NCBI RefSeq assembly: GCF_002557795.1
Contig: NZ_CP023777.1
Location: 1,938,001-2,002,000 of the forward strand
Reading direction: 5' to 3'
DNA length: 64,000 nucleotides
Source of the DNA: Chitinophaga caeni
Lineage (GTDB): Bacteria; Bacteroidota; Bacteroidia; Chitinophagales; Chitinophagaceae
In this document: positions 11,760-62,629 of the stretch, in pieces
Layout of the letters: every line of letters begins with the position of its first letter
Position numbering within the stretch: the stretch's first letter is position 1
Position numbers and translations under genes: made by a program
Notes under the pieces: generated by a model
Databases searched by the model: none
Seen by the model: only the letters and a program-made list of their open reading frames with translations
Told to the model about the DNA's origin: nothing

Positions 11760-11778
11760 TTTAATTTTTACATACCGC

Positions 11779-14425: not shown

Positions 14426-14432
14426 AATAAAG

Positions 14433-14758: not shown

Positions 14759-14883
14759 AACTATCAACTATCAACTAAACAATCACTCCCATAGAGCACA
14801 ACAAACCACATCAAACCACAACCTAATCCGTCTAAATCCATTCCAATCCATTCCTCCGTGAAATCCACGCCATCCGTGATCGA

Positions 14884-18555: not shown

Positions 18556-18564
18556 ATCAAGGGC

Positions 18565-19431: not shown

Positions 19432-19493
19432 TAAAATTACAGTAAAAATTGGGTAAATTGCTGTTTTAGTTGATGCACATTTAACTGGATTTT

Positions 19494-20750: not shown

Positions 20751-20755
20751 TTAGT

Positions 20756-45722: not shown

Positions 45723-45725
45723 AAA

Positions 45726-46673
45726 ATGAAGAAAGACAGTATTTACTATAAACAGGTACAACTTTTAGTACGAGTATTACCACTACTAGATAGTGAAAAG
45801 TGTTTCGCTCTAAAAGGAGGAACAGCCATCAATTTATTTTTTAGAGAATTACCACGGTTGTCGGTGGATATTGACTTGCTATATCTTCCTTCTGAAGGAC
45901 GTGAAGAGGCCTTGATTAATATTCGTGCAGCATTAACGCGTTTGAGTACCTTAATAAAGAAAACAATTCCAGAGATACGTATTCAAAATACTCACGAACA
46001 AAGCGATGCACTACGTCTGATTCTTCAGTTAGGAGATATTCGTATAAAAGTGGAATTATCTCCTGTAATCAGAGGGACTGTATTTCCAGAAGAGCGCATG
46101 GAGGTATGTGAAGTAGTAGAAAAAGAATTTGGTTATGCTGAAATCCAAGTTGCTTCGTTACCTGATTTATATGCTGGAAAAATTTGTGCAGCTTTGGATA
46201 GACAGCATCCTAGAGATTTGTTTGATGTGAAGTTTCTTTTAGAGAATGAAGGTTTTACTGAGGATCTTCGTAAAACATTTTTAATATTTCTCATAAGTCA
46301 CCAACGACCTATGTCAGAACTATTAGCCCCACACAGAAAGGATATAAGGGATATCTATGTTTCTGAATTTGCAGATATGGCAGAAGTAAATATACCAATT
46401 GAAGAATTAGAGCAAACAAGAGAGCATCTTATCGATATTATCCATCAAAATATAACAGATAAAGAAAGAAAATTTCTACTATCCTTTAAAGACAGAAATC
46501 CCAATTGGGATTTATTGGGATTAGAAAACATAGATGAAGTTTCTAATTTACCTTCAGTTCAATGGAAACTAATGAATCTAAAAAATATGGATATTGTAAA
46601 GCATACAAAAGCTCTGGATAAATTGAAGACAGTTTTATATCCTATTAAAGAAGATAAAATTACGGATATATAA
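45726..46673 (+). CDS. abiEii: Type IV toxin AbiEii, nucleotidyltransferase
   Basis: The 315-residue protein has the DNA polymerase-beta-like nucleotidyltransferase motif KGGTAINLF followed by RLSVDIDLLYLP (GG and DxD), a central KVELSPVIRG strand, and DLYAGKICAALDRQHPRDLFDVKFLL. AbiEii enzymes transfer nucleotides, for known relatives onto tRNA 3' ends, and stop growth in phage infection. No terminator separates it from the helicase gene 49 bp downstream, so the defence genes may share the abiE transcript. Confidence 0.92.
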   Translation: MKKDSIYYKQVQLLVRVLPLLDSEKCFALKGGTAINLFFRELPRLSVDIDLLYLPSEGREEALINIRAALTRLSTLIKKTIPEIRIQNTHEQSDALRLILQLGDIRIKVELSPVIRGTVFPEERMEVCEVVEKEFGYAEIQVASLPDLYAGKICAALDRQHPRDLFDVKFLLENEGFTEDLRKTFLIFLISHQRPMSELLAPHRKDIRDIYVSEFADMAEVNIPIEELEQTREHLIDIIHQNITDKERKFLLSFKDRNPNWDLLGLENIDEVSNLPSVQWKLMNLKNMDIVKHTKALDKLKTVLYPIKEDKITDI

Positions 46674-46722: not shown

Positions 46723-49700
46723 ATGGATGCCTTTAAAACTCACGAAAATGTAATATCTGATTACAAATCATATTTACAATCTTTTATTAATATCAAAGAT
46801 CAAAAAATATCAGAGTACGTTAATAATTCAACGCTAGTTAATGATATTCTACCTGAACCACTTATACAGTTTAATCCTTCTTTTGAAAAAGGAAAATCTT
46901 TAGATGAACTAATTCAGGAAAACACAATACATCCAAGTCTTTCGAAAGCTTTAGGTTCATATCGGCTATATAAACATCAGGTTGAGGCAATTCAGATAGG
47001 TGTTCAAGATAAAGGATTCGTGGTAACTTCAGGTACAGGGTCGGGTAAATCTCTAACTTTTTTGGCTACTGTTTTTAATGATCTTTTTAAGAGAGGAACG
47101 GAAAAGAAAAAGGGAGTTAAAGCCATATTGGTTTATCCGATGAATGCCTTAATCAACTCTCAATACGAAGAGATTAAAAAATATGCTGATACCTATGGTG
47201 ATGGTTTCCCTATCACATTCGCCCAATATACTGGACAAGAGTCTGGAAACATCAGAGAAGAAATAAAGAATGACCAACCAGATATTCTTTTAACCAATTA
47301 TATGATGCTGGAGCTAATAATGACCAGACAGTCTGAAAAATGGTTAAGGGATTCAATGCTTAAAAATCTCAAATATATAATTTATGACGAGCTCCACACC
47401 TATAGAGGAAGGCAAGGAGCTGATGTAAGTTTATTAAATCGAAGAATTCAGGCTCTTTCGGAAAATGATCTAATTTTTATTGGTACTTCAGCAACTATGA
47501 CTTCTCAAGGTTCTCCCGAAGAAAAAAAGAAAAAAGTAGCAGAGGTTGCAACACAGATATTTGGCAAAGAATTTCCGTCTGAATATGTTGTTAACGAATA
47601 CCTTGAGCCTTGTACTGTCGCCAAACAGGTAAATCCTTTTCAATTAGCGAATGCTATACGAGTAGGTATTAATTCTAAAGGAACAGAAGAAGATTTTATT
47701 AGTAATGATCTGGCTAATTGGCTGGAGATGAATATTGCGTTAAAGTCTAATCACGATATATTAGAAAGAGGAAAGCCTTTAAGTATCGACCAGATTGCTG
47801 AGAAAATACATGATGAAACTTTTTTGTCGAAAGATGAAATACGAAGTACACTTTCTGATCTTTTAAAGTGGGCAGAAAGTATCAATGAAAACAACAGATT
47901 GAAAGGAACTCGTAAATCCTTTCTTCCTTTTCGTTTTCATCAGTTTATCTCCCAAACAGGATCGATATCAGTAACACTAGAACCAAGAAATACACGATAT
48001 ATAACTTCATCTGACGAGCCTTTCATTAAAATTGAAGGAAAAGAAAGAAAACTTTACCCGTTGCTTTTTTCTCGATATTCCGGTTATGAATTTCTTTGTG
48101 TTGAATTAGACACCTACGAAAGCCAACTTTTACCGGTTATCCCGAATAAAGAATTTGTAAATAAGAAGAAAGCAGAAGTCAATCAGAAAAACCCAGACAT
48201 AGAGGATTTTAAGTTTGGATATATCATATTAGACGAAGGAGAAGATTTCTGGAATACAGATTTTCGTGATTTAGTGCCAGCCGAATGGTTGAACAAGCAA
48301 GGAAATGCATTGCTTCCCTATTATCAAATGTTAATGCCACATGAAATATATTTTAATAGTGACGGGCAGTTTTCTTTTGACCCAAAGTTCCCTATTAAAG
48401 GTTATTTCATTCCTTCGAAATTGAGAATTGACCCAACAGCACAAATTATTTATGAAGACAGTAAGACGAATGATTTTACCAAGCTTTCTAGATTAGGTTC
48501 AGAAGGTAGAAGTACTGCAACTTCTGTAATTTCTTATGCTGTGATTAACAGTTTAGCTGTACAGGGAGAAAAACTACAGGATCAAAAACTATTAAGTTTT
48601 ACTGATAATAGACAAGACGCATCTTTACAGTCAGGACACTTTAATGATTTTTATACCACCGTTCGCTTGAGGTCAGCCCTCTATAAAGCTTTAAAAGAAA
48701 GTGAGAAGCCACTTGAAATACACGAAATAGCAGAATCTTTATATCAAAGCCTGAAATTAAAAGAAAAAGACTACGCGTTATATCCATCGCGAGATGAAGA
48801 TTTTCCTGATGAAAGAAATATTGAAGCTCTTAAGGATTATCTGAAGTATAGAATATTTCAAGATTTGAAAAGGGGCTGGCGATATACATTGCCTAACCTA
48901 GAGCAGGTAGCACTTTTAGATATAGATTATAAAAACCTGAACAAACTTTCTGAATTAGATGATCGCTTTGATAAACTTGAGCTTTTAAGAAATATATCAA
49001 AAGAAAATCGAAAGGAGTTTTTAAAAAATATTTTGGATTATTTCAGAACTAATTTTGCGCTTGACCATAAATTCTTTAAAGATATAGCCAATATTGAAGA
49101 ATTAATGAGAGACAGATTGCATCCTGATTCTGTGTGGTCTCTTGATTATAATGAAAAGTTGGATAAGCCTACCGAGATGGTAATTACAATACCTTCACCG
49201 AGACCAAAAGGAAAGTATATCGTTTCGATGGGACTTCGTTCTAATTTGGGTAAATATATCAATCGTTTTTTTATTGAAAACAGCTCTGGTTCTGAGAAGT
49301 TGAATAGAGAAGAATATCAGATATTTATGCAAGAATTACTAAACATTCTTGTCAATACCAATTTTCTTACAGTTGATCAAGATAAAAGAAATCCAGATCT
49401 ACAGTATTATAAATTGAGAGCAGATCAATTATTATGGATAAAAGGAGATGGAGAAACATTAAAATTGGATCATACACGTTTGAATTTTCAAGCAGAATTA
49501 CCTGAATTAACTCCCAATCTCTATTTCCAAAATTTGTATAAGACAGATTTTAACAAATTCAAAAAAGAACTGATAGCAAAAGAGCACACAGGACAAATTA
49601 ACACATCACAAAGAATTGAAAGAGAGGACCAATTTAGAAAAGGAGATATCTCTACTTTGTATTGTTCGCCGACAATGGAATTAGGTATTGACATCGCTAA

Positions 49701-51879
49701 TTTAAATATTGTACACATGCGAAACGTGCCTCCAAATGCAGCGAATTATGCCCAAAGAAGTGGACGTGCAGGAAGAGGGGGACAAACAGCTTTAGTTTTT
49801 ACTTACTGCTCTACGATGTCTCCTCATGATGTGAATTATTTTAAGAATTCCGCAGAGATGGTTGCAGGAGTTGTACAGCCACCTAGGATTGACTTAATAA
49901 ATGAAGAACTTATTATCACTCATCTGAATGCCTTTTTATTGATGAAATTGGAGATTAGTGAATTAAAAACTTCGGTGGCGGATGTTTTAGATTTATCCGA
50001 TGAAAAAAATGTCTTTATAAAAAATGATATATTAAAAAGAATAGAACATCTAGTTTCTATCTCAAAAGATGACTTATTAATCGAATTTGAAAAAATAGCT
50101 TATTCTTTATTACCTGAGCTTAATAAAACCAATTGGTTTACTCAATTATGGATACTAGACAAGATCGAGAAATTTCCAAACCATTTTGCTTCATCATTTA
50201 AACGTTGGATCAGGATGTTTCAAAATGCTTGTACGCTTAGAAATAAAGCTCAGGCAATTTTGGATAATCATACTTACAAAGCGGATAGTACGGAAAGAAA
50301 AGAGGCTGCTAAACAAGAACGATTTGCGAGAAAGCAAATAGCTTTGCTGAAAAATGAAGAACAACAGAGTTCTAGCAATTCTGAGTTTTATGCATTCCGG
50401 TATCTTGCAGCTGAAGGATTTTTACCGGGCTATAATTTTACACGTCTTCCAGTTCGGGCTGTATTGGGTAAAAGTTATCGCGATGATGTAGAAGTTCTTT
50501 CAAGACCTCGCGCTTTAGCTTTATCTGAATTTGGACCGGCCAATACGGTTTATCATTCAGGAAGTAAATTCAGGATCAACCGAATGATGGTTCCGGATCT
50601 CGAAAATGCTACAGAAAAAATTCTTGTATCTAACAAAACAGGATATGCCTATTTTAATGATGAAATCAAGATAGCGAACATTGATCCTATTAGTAAAAGT
50701 CAATTGAAAGGAGATACTATTGAGCTGTTTTCGAACGTCGTAGAATTTTCCGAATGCGAAGGTATTCCTTTACAAAAAATCTCCTGTATTGAAGAGGAAA
50801 GAAGCCGATCTGGTTATGAAGTTTCATCTTATTTTAATTTTCCTCATGGAATTGAAAACGCAGAATCAGTTGTTTTAAAAAAAGGAGGCGAAAAATTACT
50901 CCAATTATATTTTAGTAAAACTGCTAATCTGGTAAAAGTCAATAAAAAAGCAAGAAGATCACCAAATGATGGTTTCAAGATTGACCAAAGAAATGGTGTT
51001 TGGGTGCAGGAAAGAAGCCTGAAAGATAACGATGAGTTACAACAGAATAGTAGAGAAATAATGCTCTATACCAAGGATACAGCTGATGTATTGTATATTC
51101 AACCTTTGGGCAATATCGGCACATCACCTGAGCAGGTTATTTCACTAAGTTATGCTTTAAAAAGAGGCATAGAAAAATTATTTCTTGTAGAAGAAAGTGA
51201 AATGGCGGTAAGCGTTATGGGAGATAAAGAAAAACCTAATATTCTTATTCATGAAGCATCCGAAGGCTCTCTTGGTATTCTTTCACAATTGATTTCTGAT
51301 CCTGTGAAAATGAAGGAATGGTTTAAAATGAGTTATGAGATTCTTCATTTTGACTCAGAAACCAGAGAAGAAACGGAACAGGGTAAAGAATTGCCTCACG
51401 CTACTTATCAAGACTTGCTAAGTTATTATAACCAGATTTATCACAAACAACTAAATCGATACATAATTAAAGAAGTTTTAGAATATTTGATGGACTGTAA
51501 TATTGAAATTGTTCAAGGGAATGAAAATGATCGAGATGAACAATATCGTTATTTGTTAGATGCGTATGATAAAAACAGTGGTACAGAATTGAAGCTGATA
51601 AAACACCTGTATGAAAATGGATATGCACTTCCTGATCGGGCACAATTAAATCTAGATAGTTATTACATTAATGCAGATTTTGTTTATAAAAACAGTTCTG
51701 GCTTTACATTAATCTTCTGTGATGGTTCCGTACACGACTTGGAAGAAGTTAAAAAACGCGATCAAATGATTGATCAGATATTAAAAGAAGGAGCTTATGA
51801 TGTAATACGTTGGCATTACAAGGAAACTTTGGAAGAATTAATGACAAGACGAAAAGACATTTTTAGAAAAATAAGATAA
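46723..51879 (+). CDS. DEAD/DEAH helicase-DUF1998 protein with a possible Vsr-like C-terminus (DrmA-DrmB/DruE-like)
   Basis: The 1718-residue protein starts with a helicase core: YRLYKHQVEAIQ, Walker A GTGSGKS (104-110), DELH (222-225) and GTSATM (254-259). The second helicase lobe is near 975-1030 with YCSPTMELGIDIANL and QRSGRAGRGG. A DUF1998-like domain lies near 1450-1570 (TADVLYIQPLGNIG, HEASEGSLGILSQL). The last 80 residues (YYINADFVYK, LIFCDGSVHD, KKRDQMIDQILKEGAYDVIR) resemble Vsr/DUF559-type nucleases. Size and order fit DruE of Druantia or a fusion of DISARM DrmA and DrmB. It is first of three closely spaced genes. Confidence 0.85.
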   Translation: MDAFKTHENVISDYKSYLQSFINIKDQKISEYVNNSTLVNDILPEPLIQFNPSFEKGKSLDELIQENTIHPSLSKALGSYRLYKHQVEAIQIGVQDKGFVVTSGTGSGKSLTFLATVFNDLFKRGTEKKKGVKAILVYPMNALINSQYEEIKKYADTYGDGFPITFAQYTGQESGNIREEIKNDQPDILLTNYMMLELIMTRQSEKWLRDSMLKNLKYIIYDELHTYRGRQGADVSLLNRRIQALSENDLIFIGTSATMTSQGSPEEKKKKVAEVATQIFGKEFPSEYVVNEYLEPCTVAKQVNPFQLANAIRVGINSKGTEEDFISNDLANWLEMNIALKSNHDILERGKPLSIDQIAEKIHDETFLSKDEIRSTLSDLLKWAESINENNRLKGTRKSFLPFRFHQFISQTGSISVTLEPRNTRYITSSDEPFIKIEGKERKLYPLLFSRYSGYEFLCVELDTYESQLLPVIPNKEFVNKKKAEVNQKNPDIEDFKFGYIILDEGEDFWNTDFRDLVPAEWLNKQGNALLPYYQMLMPHEIYFNSDGQFSFDPKFPIKGYFIPSKLRIDPTAQIIYEDSKTNDFTKLSRLGSEGRSTATSVISYAVINSLAVQGEKLQDQKLLSFTDNRQDASLQSGHFNDFYTTVRLRSALYKALKESEKPLEIHEIAESLYQSLKLKEKDYALYPSRDEDFPDERNIEALKDYLKYRIFQDLKRGWRYTLPNLEQVALLDIDYKNLNKLSELDDRFDKLELLRNISKENRKEFLKNILDYFRTNFALDHKFFKDIANIEELMRDRLHPDSVWSLDYNEKLDKPTEMVITIPSPRPKGKYIVSMGLRSNLGKYINRFFIENSSGSEKLNREEYQIFMQELLNILVNTNFLTVDQDKRNPDLQYYKLRADQLLWIKGDGETLKLDHTRLNFQAELPELTPNLYFQNLYKTDFNKFKKELIAKEHTGQINTSQRIEREDQFRKGDISTLYCSPTMELGIDIANLNIVHMRNVPPNAANYAQRSGRAGRGGQTALVFTYCSTMSPHDVNYFKNSAEMVAGVVQPPRIDLINEELIITHLNAFLLMKLEISELKTSVADVLDLSDEKNVFIKNDILKRIEHLVSISKDDLLIEFEKIAYSLLPELNKTNWFTQLWILDKIEKFPNHFASSFKRWIRMFQNACTLRNKAQAILDNHTYKADSTERKEAAKQERFARKQIALLKNEEQQSSSNSEFYAFRYLAAEGFLPGYNFTRLPVRAVLGKSYRDDVEVLSRPRALALSEFGPANTVYHSGSKFRINRMMVPDLENATEKILVSNKTGYAYFNDEIKIANIDPISKSQLKGDTIELFSNVVEFSECEGIPLQKISCIEEERSRSGYEVSSYFNFPHGIENAESVVLKKGGEKLLQLYFSKTANLVKVNKKARRSPNDGFKIDQRNGVWVQERSLKDNDELQQNSREIMLYTKDTADVLYIQPLGNIGTSPEQVISLSYALKRGIEKLFLVEESEMAVSVMGDKEKPNILIHEASEGSLGILSQLISDPVKMKEWFKMSYEILHFDSETREETEQGKELPHATYQDLLSYYNQIYHKQLNRYIIKEVLEYLMDCNIEIVQGNENDRDEQYRYLLDAYDKNSGTELKLIKHLYENGYALPDRAQLNLDSYYINADFVYKNSSGFTLIFCDGSVHDLEEVKKRDQMIDQILKEGAYDVIRWHYKETLEELMTRRKDIFRKIR

Positions 51880-51922: not shown

Positions 51923-54760
51923 ATGAACAATAAATATACTCCGGGAAACTTAGTACGATATAGAAATCGAGATTGGATGGTACTCCCATCTAATGAAGAT
52001 CAGGTTATTTTGGTAAAACCACTTGGTGGTTCCGATGAGGAAACTACCGGTATTTTTATGCCTTTAGCAAAAGATGTCGAAGCTGTAGAAAAAGCCACCT
52101 TCAAAGAACCTACACCAAATCAGATCGGAAACTTTGAAACAGCGAAACTTCTGTATAATGCCTCCCGCCTTTCTTTAAGAAATGCCGCAGGTCCATTTAG
52201 AAGTATGGGAAAACTATCCTTTAGACCAAGATCGTATCAGGTTGTTCCATTAGTAATGGCACTAAAGCAGGATATTACGAGACTGTTGATCGCTGACGAT
52301 GTTGGTATTGGAAAAACCATAGAAGCTTTACTCATTATCAAAGAGCTGATTGAAAGAGGCGAGATCAAAAGATTTGCAGTGATTTGTCCACCTCATTTGT
52401 GCGAACAATGGCAGCAGGAATTAAAAGACAAATTAGATATTGATGTGGAGATTATCCGTTCTAGTACAGCATCTCGTTTGGATCGTATGGTACCTGATGA
52501 TCGCTCTGTTTTTTATCATATCCCATATCAGGTAATTTCGGTTGATTATATAAAAACAGATAAACGTAGAGGTATCTTTTTGAATGATTGCCCAGAATTA
52601 GTTGTGGTTGATGAAGCACATACCTGTACTTTGCCTAAAGGAGCATCTTCAAAAAATCAACAACAACGATATAACCTCATTCACGATATTGCTTTAAATA
52701 AAACTCGACATTTGATATTGCTTACTGCAACACCGCATAGTGGTAAGGATGAAGAGTTTCTTTCTCTTTTAGGCTTATTAAACCCAGCTTTCGAACGATT
52801 GAATTTTGAGAAACTTGAACAGGCTGACAGACGAAAAATTGCACAGTATTTTATCCAACGTAAGCGTGAAAATATCCGTAGATGGTTAAATGAAGACACG
52901 TTGTTTCCGGAAAGAGATTCTAAAGAGGTCGGTTTTATATTGTCAGAAGAAACTAAAGCCTTTTACAATGAATTAGTGGCATTTGCACGAGGAATTTCTG
53001 ATGTTGAGACAGATAATGAAAATACAAGACTTTTGCGTTCCTGGGCAGCAATTGCCTTAATTAAAGGTGCTATGTCAAGTCCTGCTATGGCTAAAGAAAT
53101 GTTGGAAAAACGTCAGGCAAAATTGACTGTGGAAAAAGAAATGACCGAAATTGCTCCAGATGCTGTGGAAGATACATTGTTTGAAGAAAATGATTTTGGA
53201 GTAGATTTTTCAAGATCTGATCTGTTGAATGCTGTTGATTATAAAACAGCAGAATTGGAGGGACTTACCAAATTATTAAAACGAGCAGAGTTTCTAAATG
53301 AACATGAAGAAACGGATCTTAAGATAAAACATACCATTGATCTGATTCGGAAATGGATAAAAGAAGGCTTTCAGCCGATCATTTTCTGTCATTATATTGC
53401 TACAGCAAAATATGTGGAAGAGAAACTAAAAGAAGCTCTTCCTATAAACGTATTGGTACAGGCTATTACTTCTGAACTCGCGGATGAACAGCGTAAAGAA
53501 GAAATTGAAAGAATGGGAGAACAGGAAAAAAGAGTTCTTGTAGCTACAGATTGTTTAAGTGAAGGAATCAATTTACAGGATCACTTTAATGCAGTGTTGC
53601 ATTATGATCTTCCTTGGAATCCAAACAGAATAGAACAACGAGAAGGTAGAGTTGACCGTTTTGGGCAAGCTTCAAAGGATATTAAAACATATATGCTTTA
53701 TGGAGAAAATAATCCTATGGATAAGTTTATTCTGGAGGTGCTAATTCGTAAGGTACGTGAAATTCAAAAAAGTATTGGAGTTACGATTCCTATAGGTGAA
53801 AATAATAAATCGTTGATGGCAGAACTTACGCAAAAGATTTTGAAAACTGCATCAGAAACCGAACAACTGACACTTTTTGCCGAAGATAAAATAAGAATTG
53901 ATAACGAGTTGGAAATGGCGCGTAAAAAAGGAGAAAACTTACGTTCTATTTTCGCTCAGGAATCCGTAGATGCAGAAACAATTAAAAAAGATCTGCAAGA
54001 AGTAGATGAAGCTATTGGTGATCCGAAAGTCGTGGAGAGTTTTACTGTATTTGCTTTACAATCATTAGGAGCCTCAGTCACACCTGATTTTGAAGGGTAT
54101 AAAATCCAGACAACGAATCTTCCTAAACATTTACAAGTTGCGTTGCTTTCAAAAACAGAACAACTAAAAGGAAAAACAGAAACTAAAATTGCTTTCATTT
54201 CACCTACACCTAAAAGCTATCAATATATTGGAAGAAATCATCGCTTTGTGGAGCAGCTTTGTCACTACATAGTAAGTAATGCGTTTGAAGAAAAAGGTAA
54301 TTCCTACGGTTTGGCAAGAACCAGTGTGATACAGACCGAAAGCGTTCAAAGCAAAACAACATTAGTAATGTTCAGGGTTAGAAATGTAGTAAAAGAAGTA
54401 CGTTCCCGAAATGAATCCGTGGCAGAAGAAATGTATCTGTGGGGATATACGGAAAGTGAGACTGGCTTACACCCTATTAATTTTGAACAATCACAGGAAC
54501 TCTTGAACAAAGCTATCCCTTTGAGCAATATGTCAATTGAGCAACAACAGCAACTTCTGAAAATAGAACTAAATTCTTTTGACAATAAAAAAGATGCTTT
54601 TATAGAAATTGCAACAGAGCGTGCTGATAAATTGGTAGAGGCTCACGGACGATTTAAAACGTTAATTGGGGGGCGTAGTTATGAAAAGTCAACTCCTGTG
54701 CTTCCACCAGATGTAATGGGGGTTTACATTTTATTGCCAAAACCTAAAGATCTTTTTTAA
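51923..54760 (+). CDS. SNF2-type helicase (DrmD-like)
   Basis: The 945-residue protein begins with a small beta domain (PGNLVRYRNRDWMVLPSNED). The SNF2-type helicase follows: RSYQVVPLVMAL, Walker A ADDVGIGKTIEAL, VICPPHLCEQWQQEL, DEAH in LVVVDEAHTC, LLTATPHSGK, and lobe 2 with VLVATDCLSEGINLQDHF and WNPNRIEQREGRVDRFGQ. Lobe residues are all intact. The 250-residue C-terminus is unassigned. It matches the DrmD partner of class 1 DISARM. The spacing is 43 bp to the gene before and 3 bp to the methyltransferase. Confidence 0.88.
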   Translation: MNNKYTPGNLVRYRNRDWMVLPSNEDQVILVKPLGGSDEETTGIFMPLAKDVEAVEKATFKEPTPNQIGNFETAKLLYNASRLSLRNAAGPFRSMGKLSFRPRSYQVVPLVMALKQDITRLLIADDVGIGKTIEALLIIKELIERGEIKRFAVICPPHLCEQWQQELKDKLDIDVEIIRSSTASRLDRMVPDDRSVFYHIPYQVISVDYIKTDKRRGIFLNDCPELVVVDEAHTCTLPKGASSKNQQQRYNLIHDIALNKTRHLILLTATPHSGKDEEFLSLLGLLNPAFERLNFEKLEQADRRKIAQYFIQRKRENIRRWLNEDTLFPERDSKEVGFILSEETKAFYNELVAFARGISDVETDNENTRLLRSWAAIALIKGAMSSPAMAKEMLEKRQAKLTVEKEMTEIAPDAVEDTLFEENDFGVDFSRSDLLNAVDYKTAELEGLTKLLKRAEFLNEHEETDLKIKHTIDLIRKWIKEGFQPIIFCHYIATAKYVEEKLKEALPINVLVQAITSELADEQRKEEIERMGEQEKRVLVATDCLSEGINLQDHFNAVLHYDLPWNPNRIEQREGRVDRFGQASKDIKTYMLYGENNPMDKFILEVLIRKVREIQKSIGVTIPIGENNKSLMAELTQKILKTASETEQLTLFAEDKIRIDNELEMARKKGENLRSIFAQESVDAETIKKDLQEVDEAIGDPKVVESFTVFALQSLGASVTPDFEGYKIQTTNLPKHLQVALLSKTEQLKGKTETKIAFISPTPKSYQYIGRNHRFVEQLCHYIVSNAFEEKGNSYGLARTSVIQTESVQSKTTLVMFRVRNVVKEVRSRNESVAEEMYLWGYTESETGLHPINFEQSQELLNKAIPLSNMSIEQQQQLLKIELNSFDNKKDAFIEIATERADKLVEAHGRFKTLIGGRSYEKSTPVLPPDVMGVYILLPKPKDLF

Positions 54761-54763: not shown

Positions 54764-57700
54764 ATGAAATTAACAACAATTAATATACAGGGAAACATTT
54801 TTACCAGCGAAATTCTTGAAAAAATTCGTCAGGATGATATTAGTTTCCAAAAACCGCAAGACTTTGGATTAAAGCCTAGTGAACAAGTTCGTGATGAGGT
54901 AAGCAACGCTTGGAGCTTATTCAACACACATTGGCAAATCTTTAAACAAAAACGAAGCTCGTTTTCAGAAATTGATAAAGGAATTTCTGAAACCCGTAAA
55001 TATTGGATTGTCCCGCTTCTCAATCTTTTGGGCTATCAGGTTGCGCTTTCCAATGCTGAAATTGTTAATGGAAAATCTTATGCAATCTCTCATAGAGCTT
55101 CCAATAAAGATGGTTTTCCCATACACATTGTGGGAAGTGAGCAATCAATGGATAAAAAGGCAGAGAGTGGACCCAGACTGTCTCCTCATTCATTGGTGCA
55201 GGAATACATTAATTCTACAGAATACATTTATGGCTTTGTTACCAATGGTAATCATTTTCGTGTATTGCGTGATGCTACACGACTTTCAAGACTAAGCTAT
55301 CTGGAGTTCAATCTTGAGCAAATGATGGAAGAAGGTCACTATGCCGAATTTGCCATTTTCTACCGTTTATTACACGCTTCGCGTATCAACGATAAAAAGG
55401 AAGATGGAAAAGATGCTGTTCTTGAATATTATCACAACGAGGCTTTAGCTTCGGGATCACGTATTCGTGAGCGATTAAGTTTGGCTGTTGAGCATTCAAT
55501 CCTAACGTTAGCAAATGGCTTACTTTTTCAACAGGAAAATGCTGAATTAAGAACTGCTTTTGAAGAAGGAACACTTTCCGCAAAAGATTACTATTTACAT
55601 ATCCTAAGATCTGTTTATCGCATATTATTTCTATTAGTCATTGAAGAGCGTAATCTGATATACAGAGATAATTTGACCGAAGAGGAAAAGAAACTCAAAG
55701 ATATCTACTACCAGTATTATAGCATTCAGCGCCTCACTTTTCTAGTCAATAAAGCCGTTTATATTGATCCGAAAAAAACAGATCTCTGGCAATCATTAAT
55801 GACAACATTCAGACTTTTTGAAGATAGACATTATGGTAAAGAATTGGGAATTGATGCACTAAGCTCTGGTATTTTTAATAGAAATGCTATTGAAAGCATC
55901 GAATCCACGGCATTGAATAATAAAGATGTATTGAATGTATTTAAGTCTTTAGTCACATTTGAAAATGAAAATAAACAAACCATTCGGGTCAATTATGCCG
56001 ATTTAGATGTAGAAGAATTTGGTTCGGTGTATGAAGGATTATTAGAATTTGAGCCAGTAGTAGAAAATGCCGAATTTAGATTTAAACAGGGAGATGACCG
56101 GGCTTCATCAGGTTCACACTATACTCCTGAAGAGTTGGTTAAGCCGTTGATTATCCATTCTTTGGATCATGTGATTACTGACAAATTAAAAGAAACCGAT
56201 CCCGAAAAAGCATTGTTGAGTATTACGGTATGTGATGTGGCTTGTGGAAGTGGGCATATTTTACTTTCCGCTGCCCGAAGAATTGGATTTGAACTCGCAA
56301 GAATAAGAAGTAATGAAGATCAGCCTACACCATCTGTTTTACGTATAGCAATTCGAGATGTAATTAAAAACTGCATTTACGGAGTCGATTTAAATCCCTT
56401 AGCTGTAGAACTATGTAAAGTAGCTTTGTGGTTGGAAGCGCATGATCCGGGTGAACCTTTAAATTTTTTAGATCACCATATTAAAAACGGTAATGCCATT
56501 GTAGGATTAGCAAATTATGAAGAACTACAAAATGGTATTGCCAGTGAAGCTTTTAAGTTCTTGTCTGGCGATGAAAAAACAATAGCTTCTGCTTTTAAGA
56601 AACGTAATGATGATGAGCGTAAACTGCAAATGAGTGAGCTTTTTGATCTGAATGCAGTAGATGGAGATTTTGTAGATGTTCAAAAGTCAATAGATCAGTT
56701 TAACCAAATGCCAGAGAAAACTTCTGAGCAGATTGAAAAGAAAGCTAAAGTTTATTACGATTTAACTAATGGAAAAAAATGGTTCAGACTCAAACAACTA
56801 GCAGACTTACAAGTAGCACAGTTCTTCATTCCCAAAACAACAGAAAACAAAGAAAAGCTAACTACACATAGCAAATACAAGACTTATCTGAATTCTGGCA
56901 CTCAGATCTTAGACCGTGGTGCAAGTATGGCAATTGCGGAAAACAAAAAATTCTTCCATTGGTTTCTGGAGTTTCCGGAAGTTTTCCAGAAAGGAGGCTT
57001 TGATTGTATTTTAGGTAATCCTCCATTTTTAGGGGGGCAAAAGTTAAGCGGAAATTACGGAACAAATTTTCTTGAATATCTAAAATATACTTATAGACCG
57101 ATAGGAGCAGTAGATTTAGTAACTTATTTTTTCAGAAGGATTTTTGATGTAATTAAAATAAAAGGATTTCAGTCGTTGATTTCTACCAACACCATTGCTC
57201 AAGGATCTGCTCGTGAAGGAGGTTTAGATGTTATCTGTTCAAGTAATGGAGTTATTAATCATGCCATTCGTTCGATGAAGTGGCCAGGGCAAGCTGCCGT
57301 TGAGGTTTCTTTGATTACGATCCATAAAGGTGAATGGAAAAATAGGTTTATTTTAGACAATAAATCGGTAGATAGAATTACATCTTATTTGGATGATTCC
57401 GAAGTGATAGGAAAACCTATGCCTTTATTATCGAATAAAGGAAAGAGTTTTCAGGGAAGTATTGTGTTAGGGAAAGGGTTTGTTTTATCTACTGAACAAG
57501 CCGAAAAACTAATAAAAAAAGATCCGCGAAATAAAGATGTAATTTTCCCATATTTAAACGGTGATGACCTAAACAATGACCCTGAACAAAAACCATCAAG
57601 ATGGGTTATTAATTTCTTTGACTGGGATGAAGAAAAAGCGAAAACTTATCCTGACTGTTACGAGATTATTGAAAAGTTGGTTAAACCCGAAAGACAGCGA

Positions 57701-58579
57701 TGGAAAAAAGACAATGAAGGCAATGAGCTTGTTGGTACATATGCATTAAGAAAACCATTACCTCAAAAGTGGTGGATATACGGTGAGAAAAGACCTGCTC
57801 TATATAATGCCATATCTGAGTTAGACCAGGTAATTGTGATTGCACAAGTATCTAAAACAACTGCATTTGCTTTTACCAAACCAAATAAAGTTCTGGACGC
57901 CAAATTAAATGTATTCGCTAGTAATTCTTTCATGATGTTTGCATTTTTACAATCAAATCTTCATATATATTGGGCGTGGAAATACTCCAGTACAATGAAA
58001 TCTGATTTAAGTTATGCACCAACACAGGTCTTTGAAACTTTTCCTTTTCCAGAAGAAATTTCACCAGATATTAGAAATGAAGTTGAAGATTTAGGAAAGA
58101 ATTATTACAATCTTAGAAAATTACTCATGTCCAAATATAAAATTGGCTTGACTCGATTTTATAATATATATCACTCTAGCGGAATACAAGAGGAAATAGA
58201 TGTAAGAGATAAACATCTAATCCTACTAAATAAACATTTGATAAGAGTGCAAATTCATATTGAAACTAAAGAAATAGTTAGTGATTTTAGTAAATTTAGG
58301 AGAATTGCTATAGAACTGGATAAAACAATTATAAAATCATATAAATGGAGCGACATAGATTTAAATCACAATTTTTATGAGCTTGAATATCTGCCAGAAA
58401 ATGATAGAATACGTTTTTCTGTTCATCCAGATGCACGTAAGGAAATATTAAAACGTTTATTGATACTCAATCATCAAAGTTACAAAAAGGAAGTATCTGA
58501 AGATTCAAAAAACATTAAGGCTAAACATAAAAAAACAGGTAATAAAAAGAAAGAAGACAATTTCCCGAAGTTATTTTAA
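54764..58579 (+). CDS. Eco57I/PglX-like adenine methyltransferase with invertible C-terminal specificity part (DrmMI-like)
   Basis: The 1271-residue protein has an N-terminal helical region, then an N6-adenine methyltransferase: motif I VCDVACGSGHILLSAARRIG (near 487), GVDLNPLAVELCKVALWLE, and motif IV NPPF in CILGNPPFLGG (near 750). No PD-(D/E)XK nuclease motif was found at the N-terminus, so it looks like a modification enzyme rather than a complete type IIG enzyme. From residue about 881 to the end it is the target-recognition part. That piece starts exactly at a 51-bp inverted repeat, and a diverged inverted copy follows the stop codon. The two gene ends overlap by 4 bp. Confidence 0.88.
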   Translation: MKLTTINIQGNIFTSEILEKIRQDDISFQKPQDFGLKPSEQVRDEVSNAWSLFNTHWQIFKQKRSSFSEIDKGISETRKYWIVPLLNLLGYQVALSNAEIVNGKSYAISHRASNKDGFPIHIVGSEQSMDKKAESGPRLSPHSLVQEYINSTEYIYGFVTNGNHFRVLRDATRLSRLSYLEFNLEQMMEEGHYAEFAIFYRLLHASRINDKKEDGKDAVLEYYHNEALASGSRIRERLSLAVEHSILTLANGLLFQQENAELRTAFEEGTLSAKDYYLHILRSVYRILFLLVIEERNLIYRDNLTEEEKKLKDIYYQYYSIQRLTFLVNKAVYIDPKKTDLWQSLMTTFRLFEDRHYGKELGIDALSSGIFNRNAIESIESTALNNKDVLNVFKSLVTFENENKQTIRVNYADLDVEEFGSVYEGLLEFEPVVENAEFRFKQGDDRASSGSHYTPEELVKPLIIHSLDHVITDKLKETDPEKALLSITVCDVACGSGHILLSAARRIGFELARIRSNEDQPTPSVLRIAIRDVIKNCIYGVDLNPLAVELCKVALWLEAHDPGEPLNFLDHHIKNGNAIVGLANYEELQNGIASEAFKFLSGDEKTIASAFKKRNDDERKLQMSELFDLNAVDGDFVDVQKSIDQFNQMPEKTSEQIEKKAKVYYDLTNGKKWFRLKQLADLQVAQFFIPKTTENKEKLTTHSKYKTYLNSGTQILDRGASMAIAENKKFFHWFLEFPEVFQKGGFDCILGNPPFLGGQKLSGNYGTNFLEYLKYTYRPIGAVDLVTYFFRRIFDVIKIKGFQSLISTNTIAQGSAREGGLDVICSSNGVINHAIRSMKWPGQAAVEVSLITIHKGEWKNRFILDNKSVDRITSYLDDSEVIGKPMPLLSNKGKSFQGSIVLGKGFVLSTEQAEKLIKKDPRNKDVIFPYLNGDDLNNDPEQKPSRWVINFFDWDEEKAKTYPDCYEIIEKLVKPERQRWKKDNEGNELVGTYALRKPLPQKWWIYGEKRPALYNAISELDQVIVIAQVSKTTAFAFTKPNKVLDAKLNVFASNSFMMFAFLQSNLHIYWAWKYSSTMKSDLSYAPTQVFETFPFPEEISPDIRNEVEDLGKNYYNLRKLLMSKYKIGLTRFYNIYHSSGIQEEIDVRDKHLILLNKHLIRVQIHIETKEIVSDFSKFRRIAIELDKTIIKSYKWSDIDLNHNFYELEYLPENDRIRFSVHPDARKEILKRLLILNHQSYKKEVSEDSKNIKAKHKKTGNKKKEDNFPKLF
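57406..57456 (+). repeat. Left 51-bp inverted repeat of the invertible segment
   Basis: This 51-bp stretch, codons IGKPMPLLSNKGKSFQG of the methyltransferase, occurs as a perfect reverse complement at 59570-59620. Identity stops sharply on both sides, while the flanking coding DNA is only similar. That is expected of a recombination site. Confidence 0.93.
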
Positions 58580-58591
58580 TCTTCGGGAAAT
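58560..58591. terminator. Bidirectional terminator at the centre of the cassette
   Basis: A perfect 11-bp stem (58560-58570 with 58581-58591) around a 10-nt loop spans both stop codons (58576-58579). It can serve whichever half is transcribed, and it marks the near-symmetric centre of the cassette. Confidence 0.75.
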
Positions 58592-59607
58592 AAATTAATA
58601 TTTGAAACTTTTGGAGCTGATTTAGATCTCTTTTTAACAATATTTTTATCCAAAGTATCAGATTTAGATTGCTCAAGATTTAATAATAACAACCGCTTTA
58701 GAATTTCTTTTTTGGCAGTTGGTTGTATTGTAAATCTTATGCGATCTTTTTCAGGAAGATGATCTAGTTCATAAAAACTATGCTTTAAATCTATATCATT
58801 CCATTTATATAATTTAATGATTTCGGAATCAATAAGCTTGTATAGCTCTCTCAGTTGAATTATATCATCATATATTTTAGCTTTATTGTTAAGTTGAATA
58901 TCATGGAATATATTTTGTAAATCTGTTAAACCTAATTGATAATGCTTCATTATTCTCAAACGAGCTATATGAAGTTCGTTTCCCAGACCATTTAACTCTT
59001 CCGACGTAACTGTCGGAAAGGGGAATGTCTCAAAAGCGTTCGTTCCAGAATACCGTAATGTAGAAACTCCCATTGTTGAACTATTTTTCCAAGCCCAGAC
59101 ATCATGGAAAGAAGAGTTTAATATTGCTAATTCTGAAAATGTACTAAGAGCAAATACAACAGTTGCCTCAGAAAAGACTATATTATTTTTGCAAATAGAA
59201 ATTAGTAAATATTTGGCATGACGGTTTAATACCATTACCTGGTCTAACTCAGATATAGTAGCGTAGAGTTCTTTTCTAGGTCTTAAAAACTGCCACCATT
59301 TTTCTTTACCTCCTTTATCTTTCTGAATAAGACGTTCAGGTCTAACTAAACGTTCAACTATATCAAAGCAGTCTGGGTAGCTCCGAGCCTTCTCTTCCGA
59401 CCAATCGAAAAAGTTAATCACCCATCGAGACGGCTCTTGAGTAGGGTTGTTATTAAGATCATCTCCATTCAAGTAAGGAAACAATACCTCTTTGTTTCGA
59501 GGATCTTTATTAATCAAAGCTAAAGCTTCTTCTGATGTTAATATAAATCCCTTTCCCAATACAATACTCCCCTGAAAACTCTTTCCTTTATTCGATAATA
59601 AAGGCAT
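58576..59607 (-). pseudogene. Silent alternative C-terminal cassette of the methyltransferase
   Basis: The frame of 343 codons (from the first Met) corresponds to residues 886-1271 of the methyltransferase on the other strand. Shared blocks are the start MPLLSNKGKSFQGSIVLGKG, NGDDLNN, PSRWVINFFDW, FETFPFP and the end region EKDRIRFTIQPTAKKEILKR. The middle, about residues 95-160, differs strongly, as expected of another target-recognition domain. No promoter or start region is evident, so it is a stored cassette, not a free gene. The open frame runs 17 codons further, through the repeat, to a TAA near 59660. Confidence 0.85.
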
Positions 59608-59620
59608 AGGTTTTCCTATC
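59570..59620 (-). repeat. Right 51-bp inverted repeat of the invertible segment
   Basis: This is the reverse complement of 57406-57456, without a mismatch. It lies 96 bp from the start of the recombinase gene. Confidence 0.93.
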
Positions 59621-59716
59621 TCTCCAAATTCAGAATATAGTTGCTGGTTTTTACTGCTTTAAATCTGTGACTTTGCAGATTATGAATAAATTCACTTCAC
59701 AAATACTTCAGGAACT

Positions 59717-60874
59717 ATGAGCATACAAATAAGCTATCGCTTTGTAATAAAAAAAGAAAAGAACAAACAGGGATTATATCCAATTTATTTGAGAGCATTT
59801 TTAAAAGGAAAAAAAATTGAAACCGCCACACCGGTAGCCATTCCTTTGCGTGATTGGTCATTGAGAAATCAACGAGTAAAATCTCAAAATAAACATCATG
59901 AAAGATACAACATGATACTAGATGCAATAGATAAAAAATCCATCAAGTTATTGGTCGATAATTTTTTAAACGAAGAATACCCTCTTTCATTAGTACAGTT
60001 CAAAGACCGCTTACTTGCCTTAAATCATTATTCAGTAGAACAAAGTTTTACAGATTATATTCTTGGTTATTTAGAAGAAAATAAAACAAAATTCAAGATA
60101 GAAACTTGGTTCGGATATAAATCTCAGATTTCCAAGATGCTTAAATTCAGGAAAGAAATCCTCTTTTCAGATATCAACGAAAGATTTATAAATGATTACA
60201 GACAATATATGCTAAATACTTTAAGTAATAATGAAAATACAGCAAGTAAAAGTTTGAGAGTCCTTCGAACTTTTGTCAATATTTCTATGCGATTTGGTTA
60301 TATAAAGACAAACCCGTTTCAATATACTTCGATAAAAAAAGTTGATGGAAAAAGAGATTTTCTCTCAATTGAAGAGTTAAATAAACTTACTGATTATTAT
60401 TCAAAAGATAATTTTACCCAATCAATAGAAAGAGATATTCTTGGGTATTTTTTATTTGCTTGTTATACAGGACTTCGGTATTCTGATTTAAAAACCTTCT
60501 CAGCGGACTCAATAGTTGATAATTCTATACACCTCCGAATGCATAAAACAGGATATTTAGTAAATATTCCTCTTAGCAAGAAGGCAAAGATGTTTATTCC
60601 CGTTACGCCTTTTAATAACAATTGTGTATTTAGAATATATTGTAATAAAGTAACTAATAGAGTATTAAAAAAAATAGGCATAGAATTGAAACTAAATAAA
60701 AAACTTACTTGTCATGTTGCTAGACATACTTTTGCTACCGTATCTATTTCGCTTGGAATTCCGATAGAGGTAGTTAGTAAATTGTTAGGACATACCAGTA
60801 TCAGAACAACGCAAGTTTATGCGAAAATTGTCGATACCGTCAAGATAAAGGAAATGCAGAAATGGGATAAATAA
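59717..60874 (+). CDS. Tyrosine recombinase, probable cassette invertase
   Basis: The 385-residue protein has an N-terminal arm domain (SYRFVIKKEKNKQGLYPIYL), a SAM-like core-binding domain (FTDYILGYLEENKTKFKIE) and a catalytic domain. The catalytic domain holds Arg in YTGLRYSDLKTF, Lys in RMHKTGYLV, HVARHTFATV (HxxR), LGHTSIRTT, and Tyr in TQVYAKIVD. All catalytic residues are present. It is of the Bacteroidota arm-domain type used both by integrases of mobile elements and by DNA invertases. Its place beside the inverted repeat makes the cassette its likely substrate. Element integration is the alternative. Confidence 0.88.
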   Translation: MSIQISYRFVIKKEKNKQGLYPIYLRAFLKGKKIETATPVAIPLRDWSLRNQRVKSQNKHHERYNMILDAIDKKSIKLLVDNFLNEEYPLSLVQFKDRLLALNHYSVEQSFTDYILGYLEENKTKFKIETWFGYKSQISKMLKFRKEILFSDINERFINDYRQYMLNTLSNNENTASKSLRVLRTFVNISMRFGYIKTNPFQYTSIKKVDGKRDFLSIEELNKLTDYYSKDNFTQSIERDILGYFLFACYTGLRYSDLKTFSADSIVDNSIHLRMHKTGYLVNIPLSKKAKMFIPVTPFNNNCVFRIYCNKVTNRVLKKIGIELKLNKKLTCHVARHTFATVSISLGIPIEVVSKLLGHTSIRTTQVYAKIVDTVKIKEMQKWDK

Positions 60875-60894: not shown

Positions 60895-60936
60895 AAATAA
60901 AACCTTTATGATTATAAATTCATAAAGGTTTTATTT
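60895..60936. terminator. Bidirectional terminator between recombinase and relaxase genes
   Basis: A perfect 16-bp stem (60895-60910 with 60921-60936) with A-run and T-run flanks lies between the two convergent genes. Confidence 0.9.
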
Positions 60937-62190
60937 TCTAAATCCCTTACGTTTCTTTATCCGATTAGCAAACTGTTCTTCCTCGTAATCGTCTCCTTGT
61001 GCATCGGGTAGCAGGCTGAACACACTTAAATCAAAATTAGACGAATGTTCCTGTGAGAGAAACTCAAAGAGGTCTTTTGTTGGTAGATTATCCAATTCAT
61101 TTGTTTTGGTAATAGGATTGTCCTGTATTTTCAATCTGGGTTTGTTTCCATTGTTCCACCAATCATTGAATACGTTTGCCGACAAGTTTCTGTCTAATTG
61201 TGAGCCGTTCCAAACGCTACGGCTTTCATGGTCGATAAAGGTTATACCGTAAATTCGTCCTTCGTTATTACGTCTTATAATCGTATTAATTCCTTGTTCA
61301 GTCAATTGCTTTTTAAAATCCGTTTCGTTACTTGTCGTATGAATGCCAAGTTCAACCGTGTTTTTCAGAACAGATCTCACAGAACTGGTTTTCAATTTCT
61401 CTTTGGACTGCTCAAAATGTTTTTGAAGCTGTGTTATTCCTGCATCTTTTCCGAAAAGTGATGCTTTGAAAGGATTGCTTGCCTTGTTGCCGTTTTCATC
61501 CAAAGCTAAATAGACCAATCCGTTTACAGGTTGTCCGTTCCGTTCGCCTTTTACTTCTTCTACTGTAATGTTGAAAAGTGATAGCAAAGCATTGTAGCTT
61601 CCCATAGTTGAAAGGCTGTAATACTTTGGCAGATGCCGTACTACCGAAGCAATCTGACTTTTGATATCGCCTTTGTGGTAATCCATAGGTTTGAAAACTT
61701 TATTGCCCTGCTTTTGCTCCTGCTTGGTCGCCTTTTGTAGATTATATTTCTGTTCTAAATCCCTACAGATTGCCATTGAGCGTGGATGGTCGTAATCATC
61801 GGGGATTTTCTTTCCGTCAATACCTACGCAGGTCGAAACGATATGAATATGCATTCGGTCAATGTCCGTATGCTTGAAAACAATATAAGGTTGACTGCCG
61901 TAACCCATACGCTCCATATACTCCAGTGCTATTTCCATAAACTGTTCATCGCTGACTTTATCCGCAGGATCGGGGTTCAGCGATATATGCCGTACTGTCT
62001 TTTCAGTTTTGATATTTGCTGATAAATACGGCTCAAAGCATTTGTTAAAATAGGCTACGGAATACTTGCCGTCAACTGTGTCAGGTATCTTGTTCAAGAA
62101 CAGAACCGCTCCGTTTTCTTTATCTACTTTCTGTTGATTGTACAAAATCGCTCCATACATATTGCTTCCCTTTCCAATTTTTGCAATCAT
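60931..62190 (-). CDS. mobB: Relaxase, MobB type
   Basis: The 419-residue protein starts MIAKIGKGSNMYGAILYNQQ and has the relaxase motifs of the Bacteroidota Mob family: RHISLNPDPAD, QPYIVFKHTDIDRMHIHIVS (HxH-type metal site), and a Tyr-containing N-terminus. It nicks at oriT and pilots the strand in mobilisation. The C-terminal 200 residues are less conserved. It is 4 bp downstream of the relaxosome partner gene. The C-terminal basic tail (RIKKRKGFRK) is complete. Confidence 0.9.
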   Translation of the reverse strand: MIAKIGKGSNMYGAILYNQQKVDKENGAVLFLNKIPDTVDGKYSVAYFNKCFEPYLSANIKTEKTVRHISLNPDPADKVSDEQFMEIALEYMERMGYGSQPYIVFKHTDIDRMHIHIVSTCVGIDGKKIPDDYDHPRSMAICRDLEQKYNLQKATKQEQKQGNKVFKPMDYHKGDIKSQIASVVRHLPKYYSLSTMGSYNALLSLFNITVEEVKGERNGQPVNGLVYLALDENGNKASNPFKASLFGKDAGITQLQKHFEQSKEKLKTSSVRSVLKNTVELGIHTTSNETDFKKQLTEQGINTIIRRNNEGRIYGITFIDHESRSVWNGSQLDRNLSANVFNDWWNNGNKPRLKIQDNPITKTNELDNLPTKDLFEFLSQEHSSNFDLSVFSLLPDAQGDDYEEEQFANRIKKRKGFRK

Positions 62191-62194
62191 AACT

Positions 62195-62629
62195 TTACTC
62201 TTTTTTCAGATGTTTTTCTTCAAATTCTTGTGTCAAACGGATAACTTCTTTAGTAACTTGTACCAATTCTATGGTTTCCTTTTCCAATCTAAAAAGGTAT
62301 GTTCCTGCTTTTTTCTCCGAAAAATTGCGGTACAATATCTTCACAATCTGATTGTAATTCGTTCCGATTGCTCGGAACTGACTAAAAAATCGCGTCAACT
62401 TTTCGTGATATTCTATTGCATCCATATCCATTTTCACGGTCTTTACCGTCTTTTGAAAGATACAGGCTGTAATAAAATGAGCAATTGCTTTCATTCTTGA
62501 CTGGTCAAAGAGGGCAAGAAATTTGGCATTATCCTCCGCATTCAAATTGATGGAATATCGATGAACCGCAGGGTCAATCTTTGGTTTTCGTCCTGTTTTC
62601 CTAATCTGTTTTCTGTTTTTCTCTTCCAT
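62195..62629 (-). CDS. Relaxosome accessory protein (MobA/MobC-like)
   Basis: The 144-residue protein has a basic N-terminus (NRKQIRKTGRKPKIDP), a ribbon-helix-helix-like part (HRYSINLNAEDNAKFLAL) and the FRAIGTNYNQIVKILYRNF block of MobC-type proteins. A C-terminal coiled coil follows. In Bacteroidota such proteins bind oriT and load the relaxase. It is named MobA in conjugative transposons of the phylum. The oriT-like region lies directly upstream. Confidence 0.85.
   Translation of the reverse strand: MEEKNRKQIRKTGRKPKIDPAVHRYSINLNAEDNAKFLALFDQSRMKAIAHFITACIFQKTVKTVKMDMDAIEYHEKLTRFFSQFRAIGTNYNQIVKILYRNFSEKKAGTYLFRLEKETIELVQVTKEVIRLTQEFEEKHLKKE

What the first reader, a model, noticed from the sequence alone, without database searches (positions are those of the whole stretch)
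57406..59620. Invertible specificity cassette in a defence methyltransferase, with its own recombinase
Seen: a perfect 51-bp inverted repeat at 57406-57456 and 59570-59620. The 3' third of the methyltransferase gene lies inside, together with a diverged, oppositely oriented second version. A tyrosine recombinase gene starts 96 bp outside. The reading frame is the same through both repeats, so inversion gives a full-length protein with another recognition part. Known: phase-variable inversion of recognition domains exists for HsdS and for PglX of some BREX loci. Inferred: a DISARM-like system here switches its methylation specificity in the same way, which I do not know to be described.
Basis: partly seen in the sequence, partly recalled or inferred. 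Interest (0 to 1): 0.95.

Follow-up and report, generated by a model that had tools for sequence, protein, structure and literature searches.

The report
Two-level invertible defence-methyltransferase specificity switch
A predicted anti-phage operon carries a DNA-methylating enzyme gene whose target-reading end lies between two nested pairs of inverted repeats; relatives carry the pieces in swapped orders, so inversion, likely by the neighbouring recombinase, would let one gene make up to four enzymes predicted to mark different DNA sequences.

Summary
In detail: a perfect 51-bp inverted repeat (57406-57456/59570-59620) flanks the methyltransferase 3' end and an oppositely oriented second copy; a tyrosine recombinase starts 96 bp outside. 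By alignment to MmeI, the outer repeat lies at the methyltransferase/TRD-N border and the inner one near the TRD-N/TRD-C border. Outer inversion would swap the whole recognition part; inner inversion only TRD-C and the tail. All four states are open in 8 of 8 intact loci. Relatives show the rearrangements: Chryseobacterium koreense proteins with identical first 880 residues have different recognition ends, and a silent copy has the re-paired combination. One Chryseobacterium assembly joins the left flank to both copies. The recombinase is in 8 of 8 cassette genomes and 0 of 5 without (E<=1e-60). The operon fits ARMADA Type I (DruE-like YprA helicase, BrxHII-like helicase, PglX-like methyltransferase) better than DISARM (no drmB/drmC hit seen). 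Ten literature searches found no phase-variable ARMADA. Not shown: methylation motifs, which enzyme cuts which site, defence in this host.

The parts
46723..51879 (+). YprA-family helicase, DruE-like (1718 aa), first of the three ARMADA-like genes
   Evidence: PADLOC DruE3 310 bits, best DrmA 47.8 bits; Pfam DEAD + Helicase_C; tree with YprA genes of YprA-BrxHII-MTase operons, apart from DruE beside DruH
51923..54760 (+). SNF2/BrxHII-like helicase (945 aa; PADLOC DpdE 538, DrmD 292, BrxHI/BrxHII 213 bits)
54764..57405 (+). constant part of the methyltransferase (residues 1-880): SAM motif CDVACGSG at 490, catalytic GNPPF at 751
   Evidence: DrmMI PDLC02643 783 bits for the whole protein
57406..57456 (+). 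outer inverted repeat, left arm; core AT.GGAAAACCTATGCC invariant in 20 of 20 copies of 10 loci
57457..57811 (+). expressed TRD-N module, type X
   Evidence: maps to MmeI TRD-N by alignment
57812..57834 (+). inner inverted repeat, left arm (ATATCTGAGTTAGACCAGGTAAT, encodes ISELDQV)
57835..58579 (+). expressed TRD-C module plus C-terminal tail (cluster a; K1079-x-D1081 at the MmeI 806/808 positions)
58576..59233 (-). silent TRD-C module plus tail (cluster b; no K-D pair)
59234..59256 (-). inner inverted repeat, right arm
59257..59569 (-). silent TRD-N module, type Y
59570..59620 (-). outer inverted repeat, right arm
59717..60874 (+). tyrosine recombinase, predicted invertase (385 aa; Arm-DNA-bind_5, SAM_5, Phage_integrase; R-K-HxxR-H-Y catalytic set present, motif recalled)
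   Evidence: present in 8 of 8 cassette genomes, 0 of 5 others at E<=1e-60; starts 100-105 bp from the outer core in 9 of 9 loci measured

Best explanation
This is a nested invertible specificity cassette in the methyltransferase gene of an operon that fits ARMADA Type I, a predicted anti-phage system, and inversion at its two pairs of repeats, likely made by the adjacent tyrosine recombinase, would switch the gene between four predicted target specificities. Outer inversion would exchange the whole recognition part (TRD-N, TRD-C and tail) with the silent copy. Inner inversion would exchange only TRD-C and the tail, so TRD-N and TRD-C re-assort. The first 880 residues, with the catalytic motifs, and the two helicase genes lie outside and stay the same. 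By homology with MmeI, TRD-N is predicted to read the first base pairs of the motif and TRD-C the rest, so each state should methylate, and let the system tolerate, a different sequence, while unmodified phage DNA with that sequence would be attacked. Shown by sequence: repeats, frames, modules, swapped orders in relatives. Inferred: the enzyme that acts, the change of motif, the effect on phages.
For: Repeats and four open frames: (8 of 8 intact loci). Inner site invariant in 20 of 20 copies of 10 loci, while the longest invariant run in the 2.6-kb constant part of 8 of them is 14 bp and abuts the outer site. Codon control: of 94 amino-acid-invariant columns (M and W left out) in 16 in-frame copies of 8 loci, 15 are codon-invariant: 7 of 7 in ISELDQV, 3 of 4 in the outer GKP.P, 5 of the other 83. 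In 6 homologues without cassette both places encode other residues. Orientation: type X TRD-N is expressed in 3 of 10 loci, the other type in 7 of 10. L015/L023: TRD-C in register at 99.7% over 360 bp, TRD-N crosswise (99.5% and 89%, in register 74% and 67%). C. koreense: two full-length proteins identical over 880 residues, one X+h, one Z+c, and a stand-alone copy Z+h with modules 100% identical (letters are my labels). Full-length P0133 (X+V), P0139 (Y+V) and P0138 (X+b), constant parts 99.9-100% identical, and stand-alone P0241 (Y+b) give all four combinations. 97 copies: 72 combinations, 16 of 18 multi-member TRD-C clusters joined to 2 or more TRD-N clusters. L012: left flank joined to both TRD copies across a 19-bp shared core, right flank on another contig ending at that core. 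Recombinase in 8 of 8 against 0 of 5 genomes, 100-105 bp from the core in 9 of 9 loci; no other downstream gene is common to all (ORF lists).
Against: The window's own genome shows one state only. No reads and no methylomes were available. Outer and inner sites share no clear sequence, so one recombinase acting on both is not supported by site similarity. The MmeI correspondence rests on sequence alignment; the placement of the inner site differs by about 9 residues between methods (MmeI 749-753, 740-746) and no structure model could be made. In L023 and L035 genes of the locus are frameshifted (L023 at many places); to-stop comparison of L015 and L023 TRD-C gave only 42% and 39% because of this, which is why 360 bp were compared. 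The 8 of 8 count includes L014, whose cassette is split over contigs, and L023, whose recombinase gene is broken. TRD-C cluster d occurs with both C-terminal tail types, which the two inversions do not explain.
Confidence: 0.86

Rival explanations
1. The cassette switches only at the outer repeats (two states); the inner 23-bp identity is kept by rare homologous recombination or gene conversion between copies, not by programmed inversion.
For: Inner and outer sites do not resemble each other; 23-41 bp of identity could serve rare homologous exchange; one recombinase gene only is shared by the loci.
Against: 100% identical modules in re-paired combinations, 7 of 7 frozen codons at the inner site, 23-bp invariance across 10 loci; C. 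koreense has ISELDLV in all three copies seen and M. roseus ISKLDHV in both, as if the two arms change together.
Confidence: 0.17
2. The recombinase is the integrase of a mobile element that inserted at the gene's end; the second TRD came in with it and the arrangement is static.
For: A relaxase and MobC lie just downstream (60931-62629); the recombinase has integrase-type domains.
Against: No shared element follows the recombinase in relatives; repeats are inverted, not direct; both orientations exist in relatives and both junctions in one assembly; recombinase tracks the cassette 8 of 8 and 0 of 5.
Confidence: 0.05
3. The inversion works as an on/off or fitness switch: the alternative recognition ends make inactive enzymes, and only one state methylates.
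For: No methylome data; in MmeI some rational TRD-N changes gave inactive enzymes (PMC4833311 section 9).
Against: All four states open in 8 of 8 intact loci; both copies keep the MmeI_TRD domain and differ where MmeI contacts bases; three of the four combinations of one set occur in full-length proteins.
Confidence: 0.1

Closest known systems
ARMADA Type I (Bell et al. 2025 preprint, PMC12458937; abstract, sections 5, 6, 26 and find passages read)
   Same: Gene content and order YprA helicase, BrxHII-like helicase, PglX-like methyltransferase; YprA nearest to Druantia DruE.
   Different: No invertible cassette is mentioned in what I saw: in the main text 'phase' occurs 0 times and 'inver' once, in a reference title; 'bacteroid' 0 times. 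Supplements were not seen.
Phase-variable pglX of BREX (PMC11341690 and PMC7513527, passages read; Goldfarb 2015 recalled, not held)
   Same: Specificity methyltransferase of a defence system; in L. [quoted passage not shown]
   Different: Different system; a nested second repeat inside the TRD and independent re-assortment of TRD-N and TRD-C are not mentioned in the passages read.
Type I hsdS shufflons, e.g. S. pneumoniae (PMC4948785, search listing only)
   Same: DNA inversions among recognition genes change methylation within a clone.
   Different: There hsdS genes for a separate S subunit are shuffled; here (by homology) the two halves of one MmeI-type TRD inside the methyltransferase itself.
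MmeI, Type IIL enzyme (PMC4833311, section 9 and find passages read; PDB 5hr4)
   Same: Methyltransferase followed by TRD-N and TRD-C (hhalign probability 99.3%).
   Different: MmeI has an N-terminal nuclease domain; no nuclease family was matched here. No invertible cassette is mentioned in the parts read.

Membership tests
ARMADA Type I | YprA-family helicase of the ARMADA/Druantia branch | tested here: met
   PADLOC DruE3 310 bits against DrmA 47.8; in a 13-row tree it groups with YprA genes whose annotated neighbours are a helicase and a methyltransferase, apart from two DruE genes beside DruH. The published type sequences were not in the tree and it carries long-branch warnings.
[quoted passage not shown]
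   46723-51879, 51923-54760, 54764-58579, all +
ARMADA Type I | anti-phage activity | not testable with these tools
   in the sections read, shown for Type II systems of E. coli
DISARM class 1 | drmB and drmC beside drmA, with drmD and drmMI (definition recalled) | tested here: not met
   drmD- and drmMI-like genes present; no DrmB or DrmC among the PADLOC rows shown for 9 proteins (lists capped at 25) and no DUF1998 or PLD family among Pfam hits of 19 neighbouring proteins
BREX | brxC/pglY, pglZ and further core genes (recalled) | tested here: not met
   PglX model 59 bits against a cut-off of 500; BrxHI/BrxHII hits to the helicases are weaker than DpdE/DrmD or DruE; no PglZ or BrxC row shown
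Invertible specificity cassette (shufflon-type phase variation) | inverted repeats, in-frame alternative module, both orientations in nature | tested here: met
Invertible specificity cassette (shufflon-type phase variation) | inversion catalysed by the adjacent recombinase | not testable with these tools
   association only: 8 of 8 against 0 of 5 genomes
Type IIL/IIG restriction-modification | nuclease domain fused to methyltransferase and TRD | tested here: inconclusive
   MmeI_Mtase and MmeI_TRD matched, no Pfam family matched in residues 1-418; no structure model could be made

The most novel reading that the evidence does not exclude
A nested two-site shufflon independently re-assorts the two halves of a single target recognition domain, so that one ARMADA methyltransferase gene cycles through four recognition sequences; widespread in Bacteroidota with large pools of interchangeable TRD-N and TRD-C modules, it makes immunity itself phase-variable and combinatorial, and offers a natural code book for programmable MmeI-type specificity.
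Probability: 0.72. Interest if true: 0.87.

Novelty: new variant of a known kind. Interest (0 to 1): 0.78.

Why it matters
If true, a recently named defence class (ARMADA) has phase-variable specificity, and a bacterial clone can hold cells with up to four self marks at once, a hedge against phages that carry one mark. Splitting one TRD by programmed inversion near the border between subdomains that read different base pairs would be a natural experiment in modular DNA recognition: the 72 TRD-N/TRD-C pairings among 97 copies give direct material for decoding which residue reads which base in MmeI/PglX-type enzymes.

Tried and rejected
Considered DISARM as the system: rejected, no drmB/drmC hit seen. 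Considered the mobile-element integrase reading: rejected, nothing else downstream of the recombinase is common to the loci. Compared outer and inner sites for a common recombinase motif and for palindromic arms: nothing convincing. A TRD search in two fragmented draft genomes found both copies in Chryseobacterium FH2 and none in Mucilaginibacter roseus; for the latter two TRD proteins with adjacent locus tags, each on a contig of 2114 bp, appear in the protein collection (P0266, P0291). A recombinase search in plasmids at E<=1e-60 gave no match. A scan of viral contigs for the inner site gave one 4816-bp contig (L043) with a recombinase 87% identical and one outer and one inner site; it is partial and was not counted. 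Literature searches for a phase-variable ARMADA/DISARM or MmeI-type inversion; nothing found, but the library holds open-licence papers only. The inner motif is not the same everywhere: C. koreense reads ISELDLV, Mucilaginibacter ISKLDHV, so the 20 of 20 invariance holds for the 10 loci, not for the whole family. Myroides P0127/P0131 first looked like two states; they carry the same recognition end and were dropped. A third repeat near the C-terminus in L011 (31 bp) has no counterpart of that length in the other loci and was not counted as a site.
Full report
What is there. The window's operon reads AbiEi-AbiEii (44934-46673), YprA-family helicase (46723-51879), SNF2/BrxHII-like helicase (51923-54760), methyltransferase (54764-58579), all on +, then a second recognition end on - (58576-59607) and a tyrosine recombinase on + (59717-60874). 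A perfect 51-bp inverted repeat lies at 57406-57456 and 59570-59620.

The missed part. A second inverted repeat, 23 bp exact, lies inside at 57812-57834 and 59234-59256. Inverting there alone gives 1242 aa, and both together 1257 aa. In the 8 loci with intact genes, all four states are open.

Relatives. A scan of genome contigs gave 14 loci. Eight carry the cassette or its left side (L011-L015, L021-L023; L014 ends at the repeat); L016-L020 lack it; L024, a 34%-identical fragment, was not examined further. Genome scans at E<=1e-100 found the methyltransferase in 1 of 79 genomes of the window's genus, itself, 3 of 173 of the genus of L015, all known already and 7 of 398 of the genus of L013: two known, two new cassettes (L032, L035) and three loci without one (L033, L034, L036). 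With the window this makes 10 complete cassettes.

Recombinase. In 13 genomes searched at E<=1e-60 the recombinase is in 8 of 8 with a cassette (L014's split over contigs, L023's gene frameshifted) and 0 of 5 without. It begins 100-105 bp from the outer core in 9 of 9 loci measured. No other downstream gene is common to the loci (ORF lists). At E<=1e-120 it is in 2 of 395 genomes of a phylum sample, the window's own included, and in 3 of 320 of the family of L015. 274 proteins match at E<=1e-60 in the protein collection, 120 of them listed.

The sites are constrained as DNA. Across 20 copies from 10 loci the inner 23 bp are identical, as is the outer core AT.GGAAAACCTATGCC; in the constant part of 8 loci the longest invariant run is 14 bp and touches the outer site. 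Of 94 amino-acid-invariant columns in 16 in-frame copies (M and W left out), 15 are codon-invariant, among them all 7 of ISELDQV. In six homologues without cassette the residues at both places are different and vary. In the wider protein set the inner motif is ISELDQV in 60, ISKLDQV in 27, ISKLDHV in 6 and ISELDLV in 4 of 97 copies, so the site itself drifts between lineages.

Both orientations exist. In 10 loci the longer TRD-N (type X) is expressed in W, L011 and L015, another type in seven. W and L032 have constant parts 98% identical, yet TRD-N is crosswise (94.1% and 93.5%, against 61-62% in register). L015 and L023 keep TRD-C in register (99.7% both over 360 bp; the to-stop figures are spoiled by frameshifts in L023) but have TRD-N crosswise (99.5%, 89%). 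In Chryseobacterium sp. FH2 the contig L012 joins the same left flank to both TRD copies, the shared core being 19 bp, and the right flank with the recombinase is on another contig that ends at that core: two orientations in the sequenced culture is the simplest reading, an assembly error the alternative. In Mucilaginibacter roseus the left contig ends at residue 880, the recombinase lies at the start of another contig, and two TRD proteins with adjacent locus tags sit on contigs of 2114 bp.

Different states with the same constant part. In Chryseobacterium koreense P0121 and P0129 are identical over the first 880 residues and first differ at 889; P0121 ends in X+h, P0129 in Z+c; the stand-alone P0271 is Z+h, each half 100% identical to its source. 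If these come from one locus, both the outer and the inner exchange are needed. P0133 (X+V), P0139 (Y+V) and P0138 (X+b), full length with constant parts 99.9-100% identical, and stand-alone P0241 (Y+b), show all four combinations. In Sphingobacterium spiritivorum two stand-alone copies share TRD-N (100%) but not TRD-C. These are proteins without context; longest-contig lengths suggest, and do not prove, that the C. koreense entries are assemblies of one strain.

How general. Of 240 listed proteins (120 of 3013 methyltransferase hits; 120 of 512 stand-alone recognition ends), 97 have an inner motif as I wrote it and enough length (20 full-length, 77 stand-alone). They fall into 22 TRD-N and 50 TRD-C clusters in 72 combinations; 16 of 18 TRD-C clusters with more than one member join two or more TRD-N clusters (14 of 18 at stricter cut-offs). 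143 of 240 were left out: 100 of the 120 methyltransferases have neither motif as written and are homologues without these sites or with diverged ones; 43 stand-alone copies lacked the motif or were too short.

What the modules would do. The family aligns to MmeI (PDB 5hr4; hhalign probability 99.3%). In MmeI, TRD-N is residues 621-745 and contacts base pairs 1-2, TRD-C is 746-825 and contacts 3-6 (PMC4833311 section 9). The outer site maps to MmeI about 624-633 and the inner site to 740-746 or 749-753, that is, to or within a few residues of the two domain borders. At the positions of MmeI 806/808, which set base pair 6, the expressed copy has K-x-D, the pair that in MmeI enzymes gives G:C; the silent copy has a glycine-type sequence instead. 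At the MmeI 773/774 positions the modules also differ. So a change of motif is predicted, not shown.

Which system. PADLOC calls the methyltransferase DrmMI and the small helicase DpdE/DrmD, but no DrmB or DrmC row was shown for the 9 proteins scanned (lists capped at 25), Pfam showed no such family in 19 neighbouring proteins, and the large helicase is DruE-like. Plasmid homologues of the helicase that cover the whole query sit, by annotation, with a helicase and a methyltransferase, in the same order in Paraburkholderia and Deinococcus and in the reversed order in Planktothrix (PADLOC check of Paraburkholderia), as described for ARMADA Type I.

Limits. No reads, no methylomes, no structure model. 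Why one TRD-C cluster (d) occurs with both C-terminal tails is unexplained. Which enzyme recombines the inner site is open.

Noticed in passing
window 44934-46673: AbiEi/AbiEii type IV toxin-antitoxin pair directly upstream of the ARMADA-like genes.
   Followed up: partly
window 60931-62629: MobA-type relaxase and MobC directly after the recombinase; another integrase-like gene (31% identical) lies at G000:C1:2005448-2006611, so the island may be part of a mobilizable element.
   Followed up: partly
window 59696-59710 and the same place in L011, L013, L015, L021-L023, L030, L031, L032, L035, L043: The stretch TTCACAAATACTTCA just before the recombinase start codon in 12 of 12 loci checked, possibly an arm-type binding site or promoter element.
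   Followed up: partly
window 58480-58579 and 58576-58700: Each of the 7 loci read carries one PKLF/LKLF-type and one FPED-type C-terminal tail; TRD-C cluster d occurs with either, so the tails have been exchanged too.
   Followed up: partly
L033 and several proteins: Some homologous methyltransferases without cassette are longer (1458-1513 aa) and carry PF04255, a DUF433 domain by the name one source gives; L033's own protein is one of them.
   Followed up: no
L039 (Deinococcus radiodurans MP1, 9992-21488): An ARMADA-like operon whose methyltransferase is annotated as two genes, just before an IS element.
   Followed up: no
L011 15274-16413 and L030: A second tyrosine recombinase, tail to tail with the first, in two of the cassette loci and a similar one in L043; not in the other loci read, so not required for the cassette.
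   Followed up: partly
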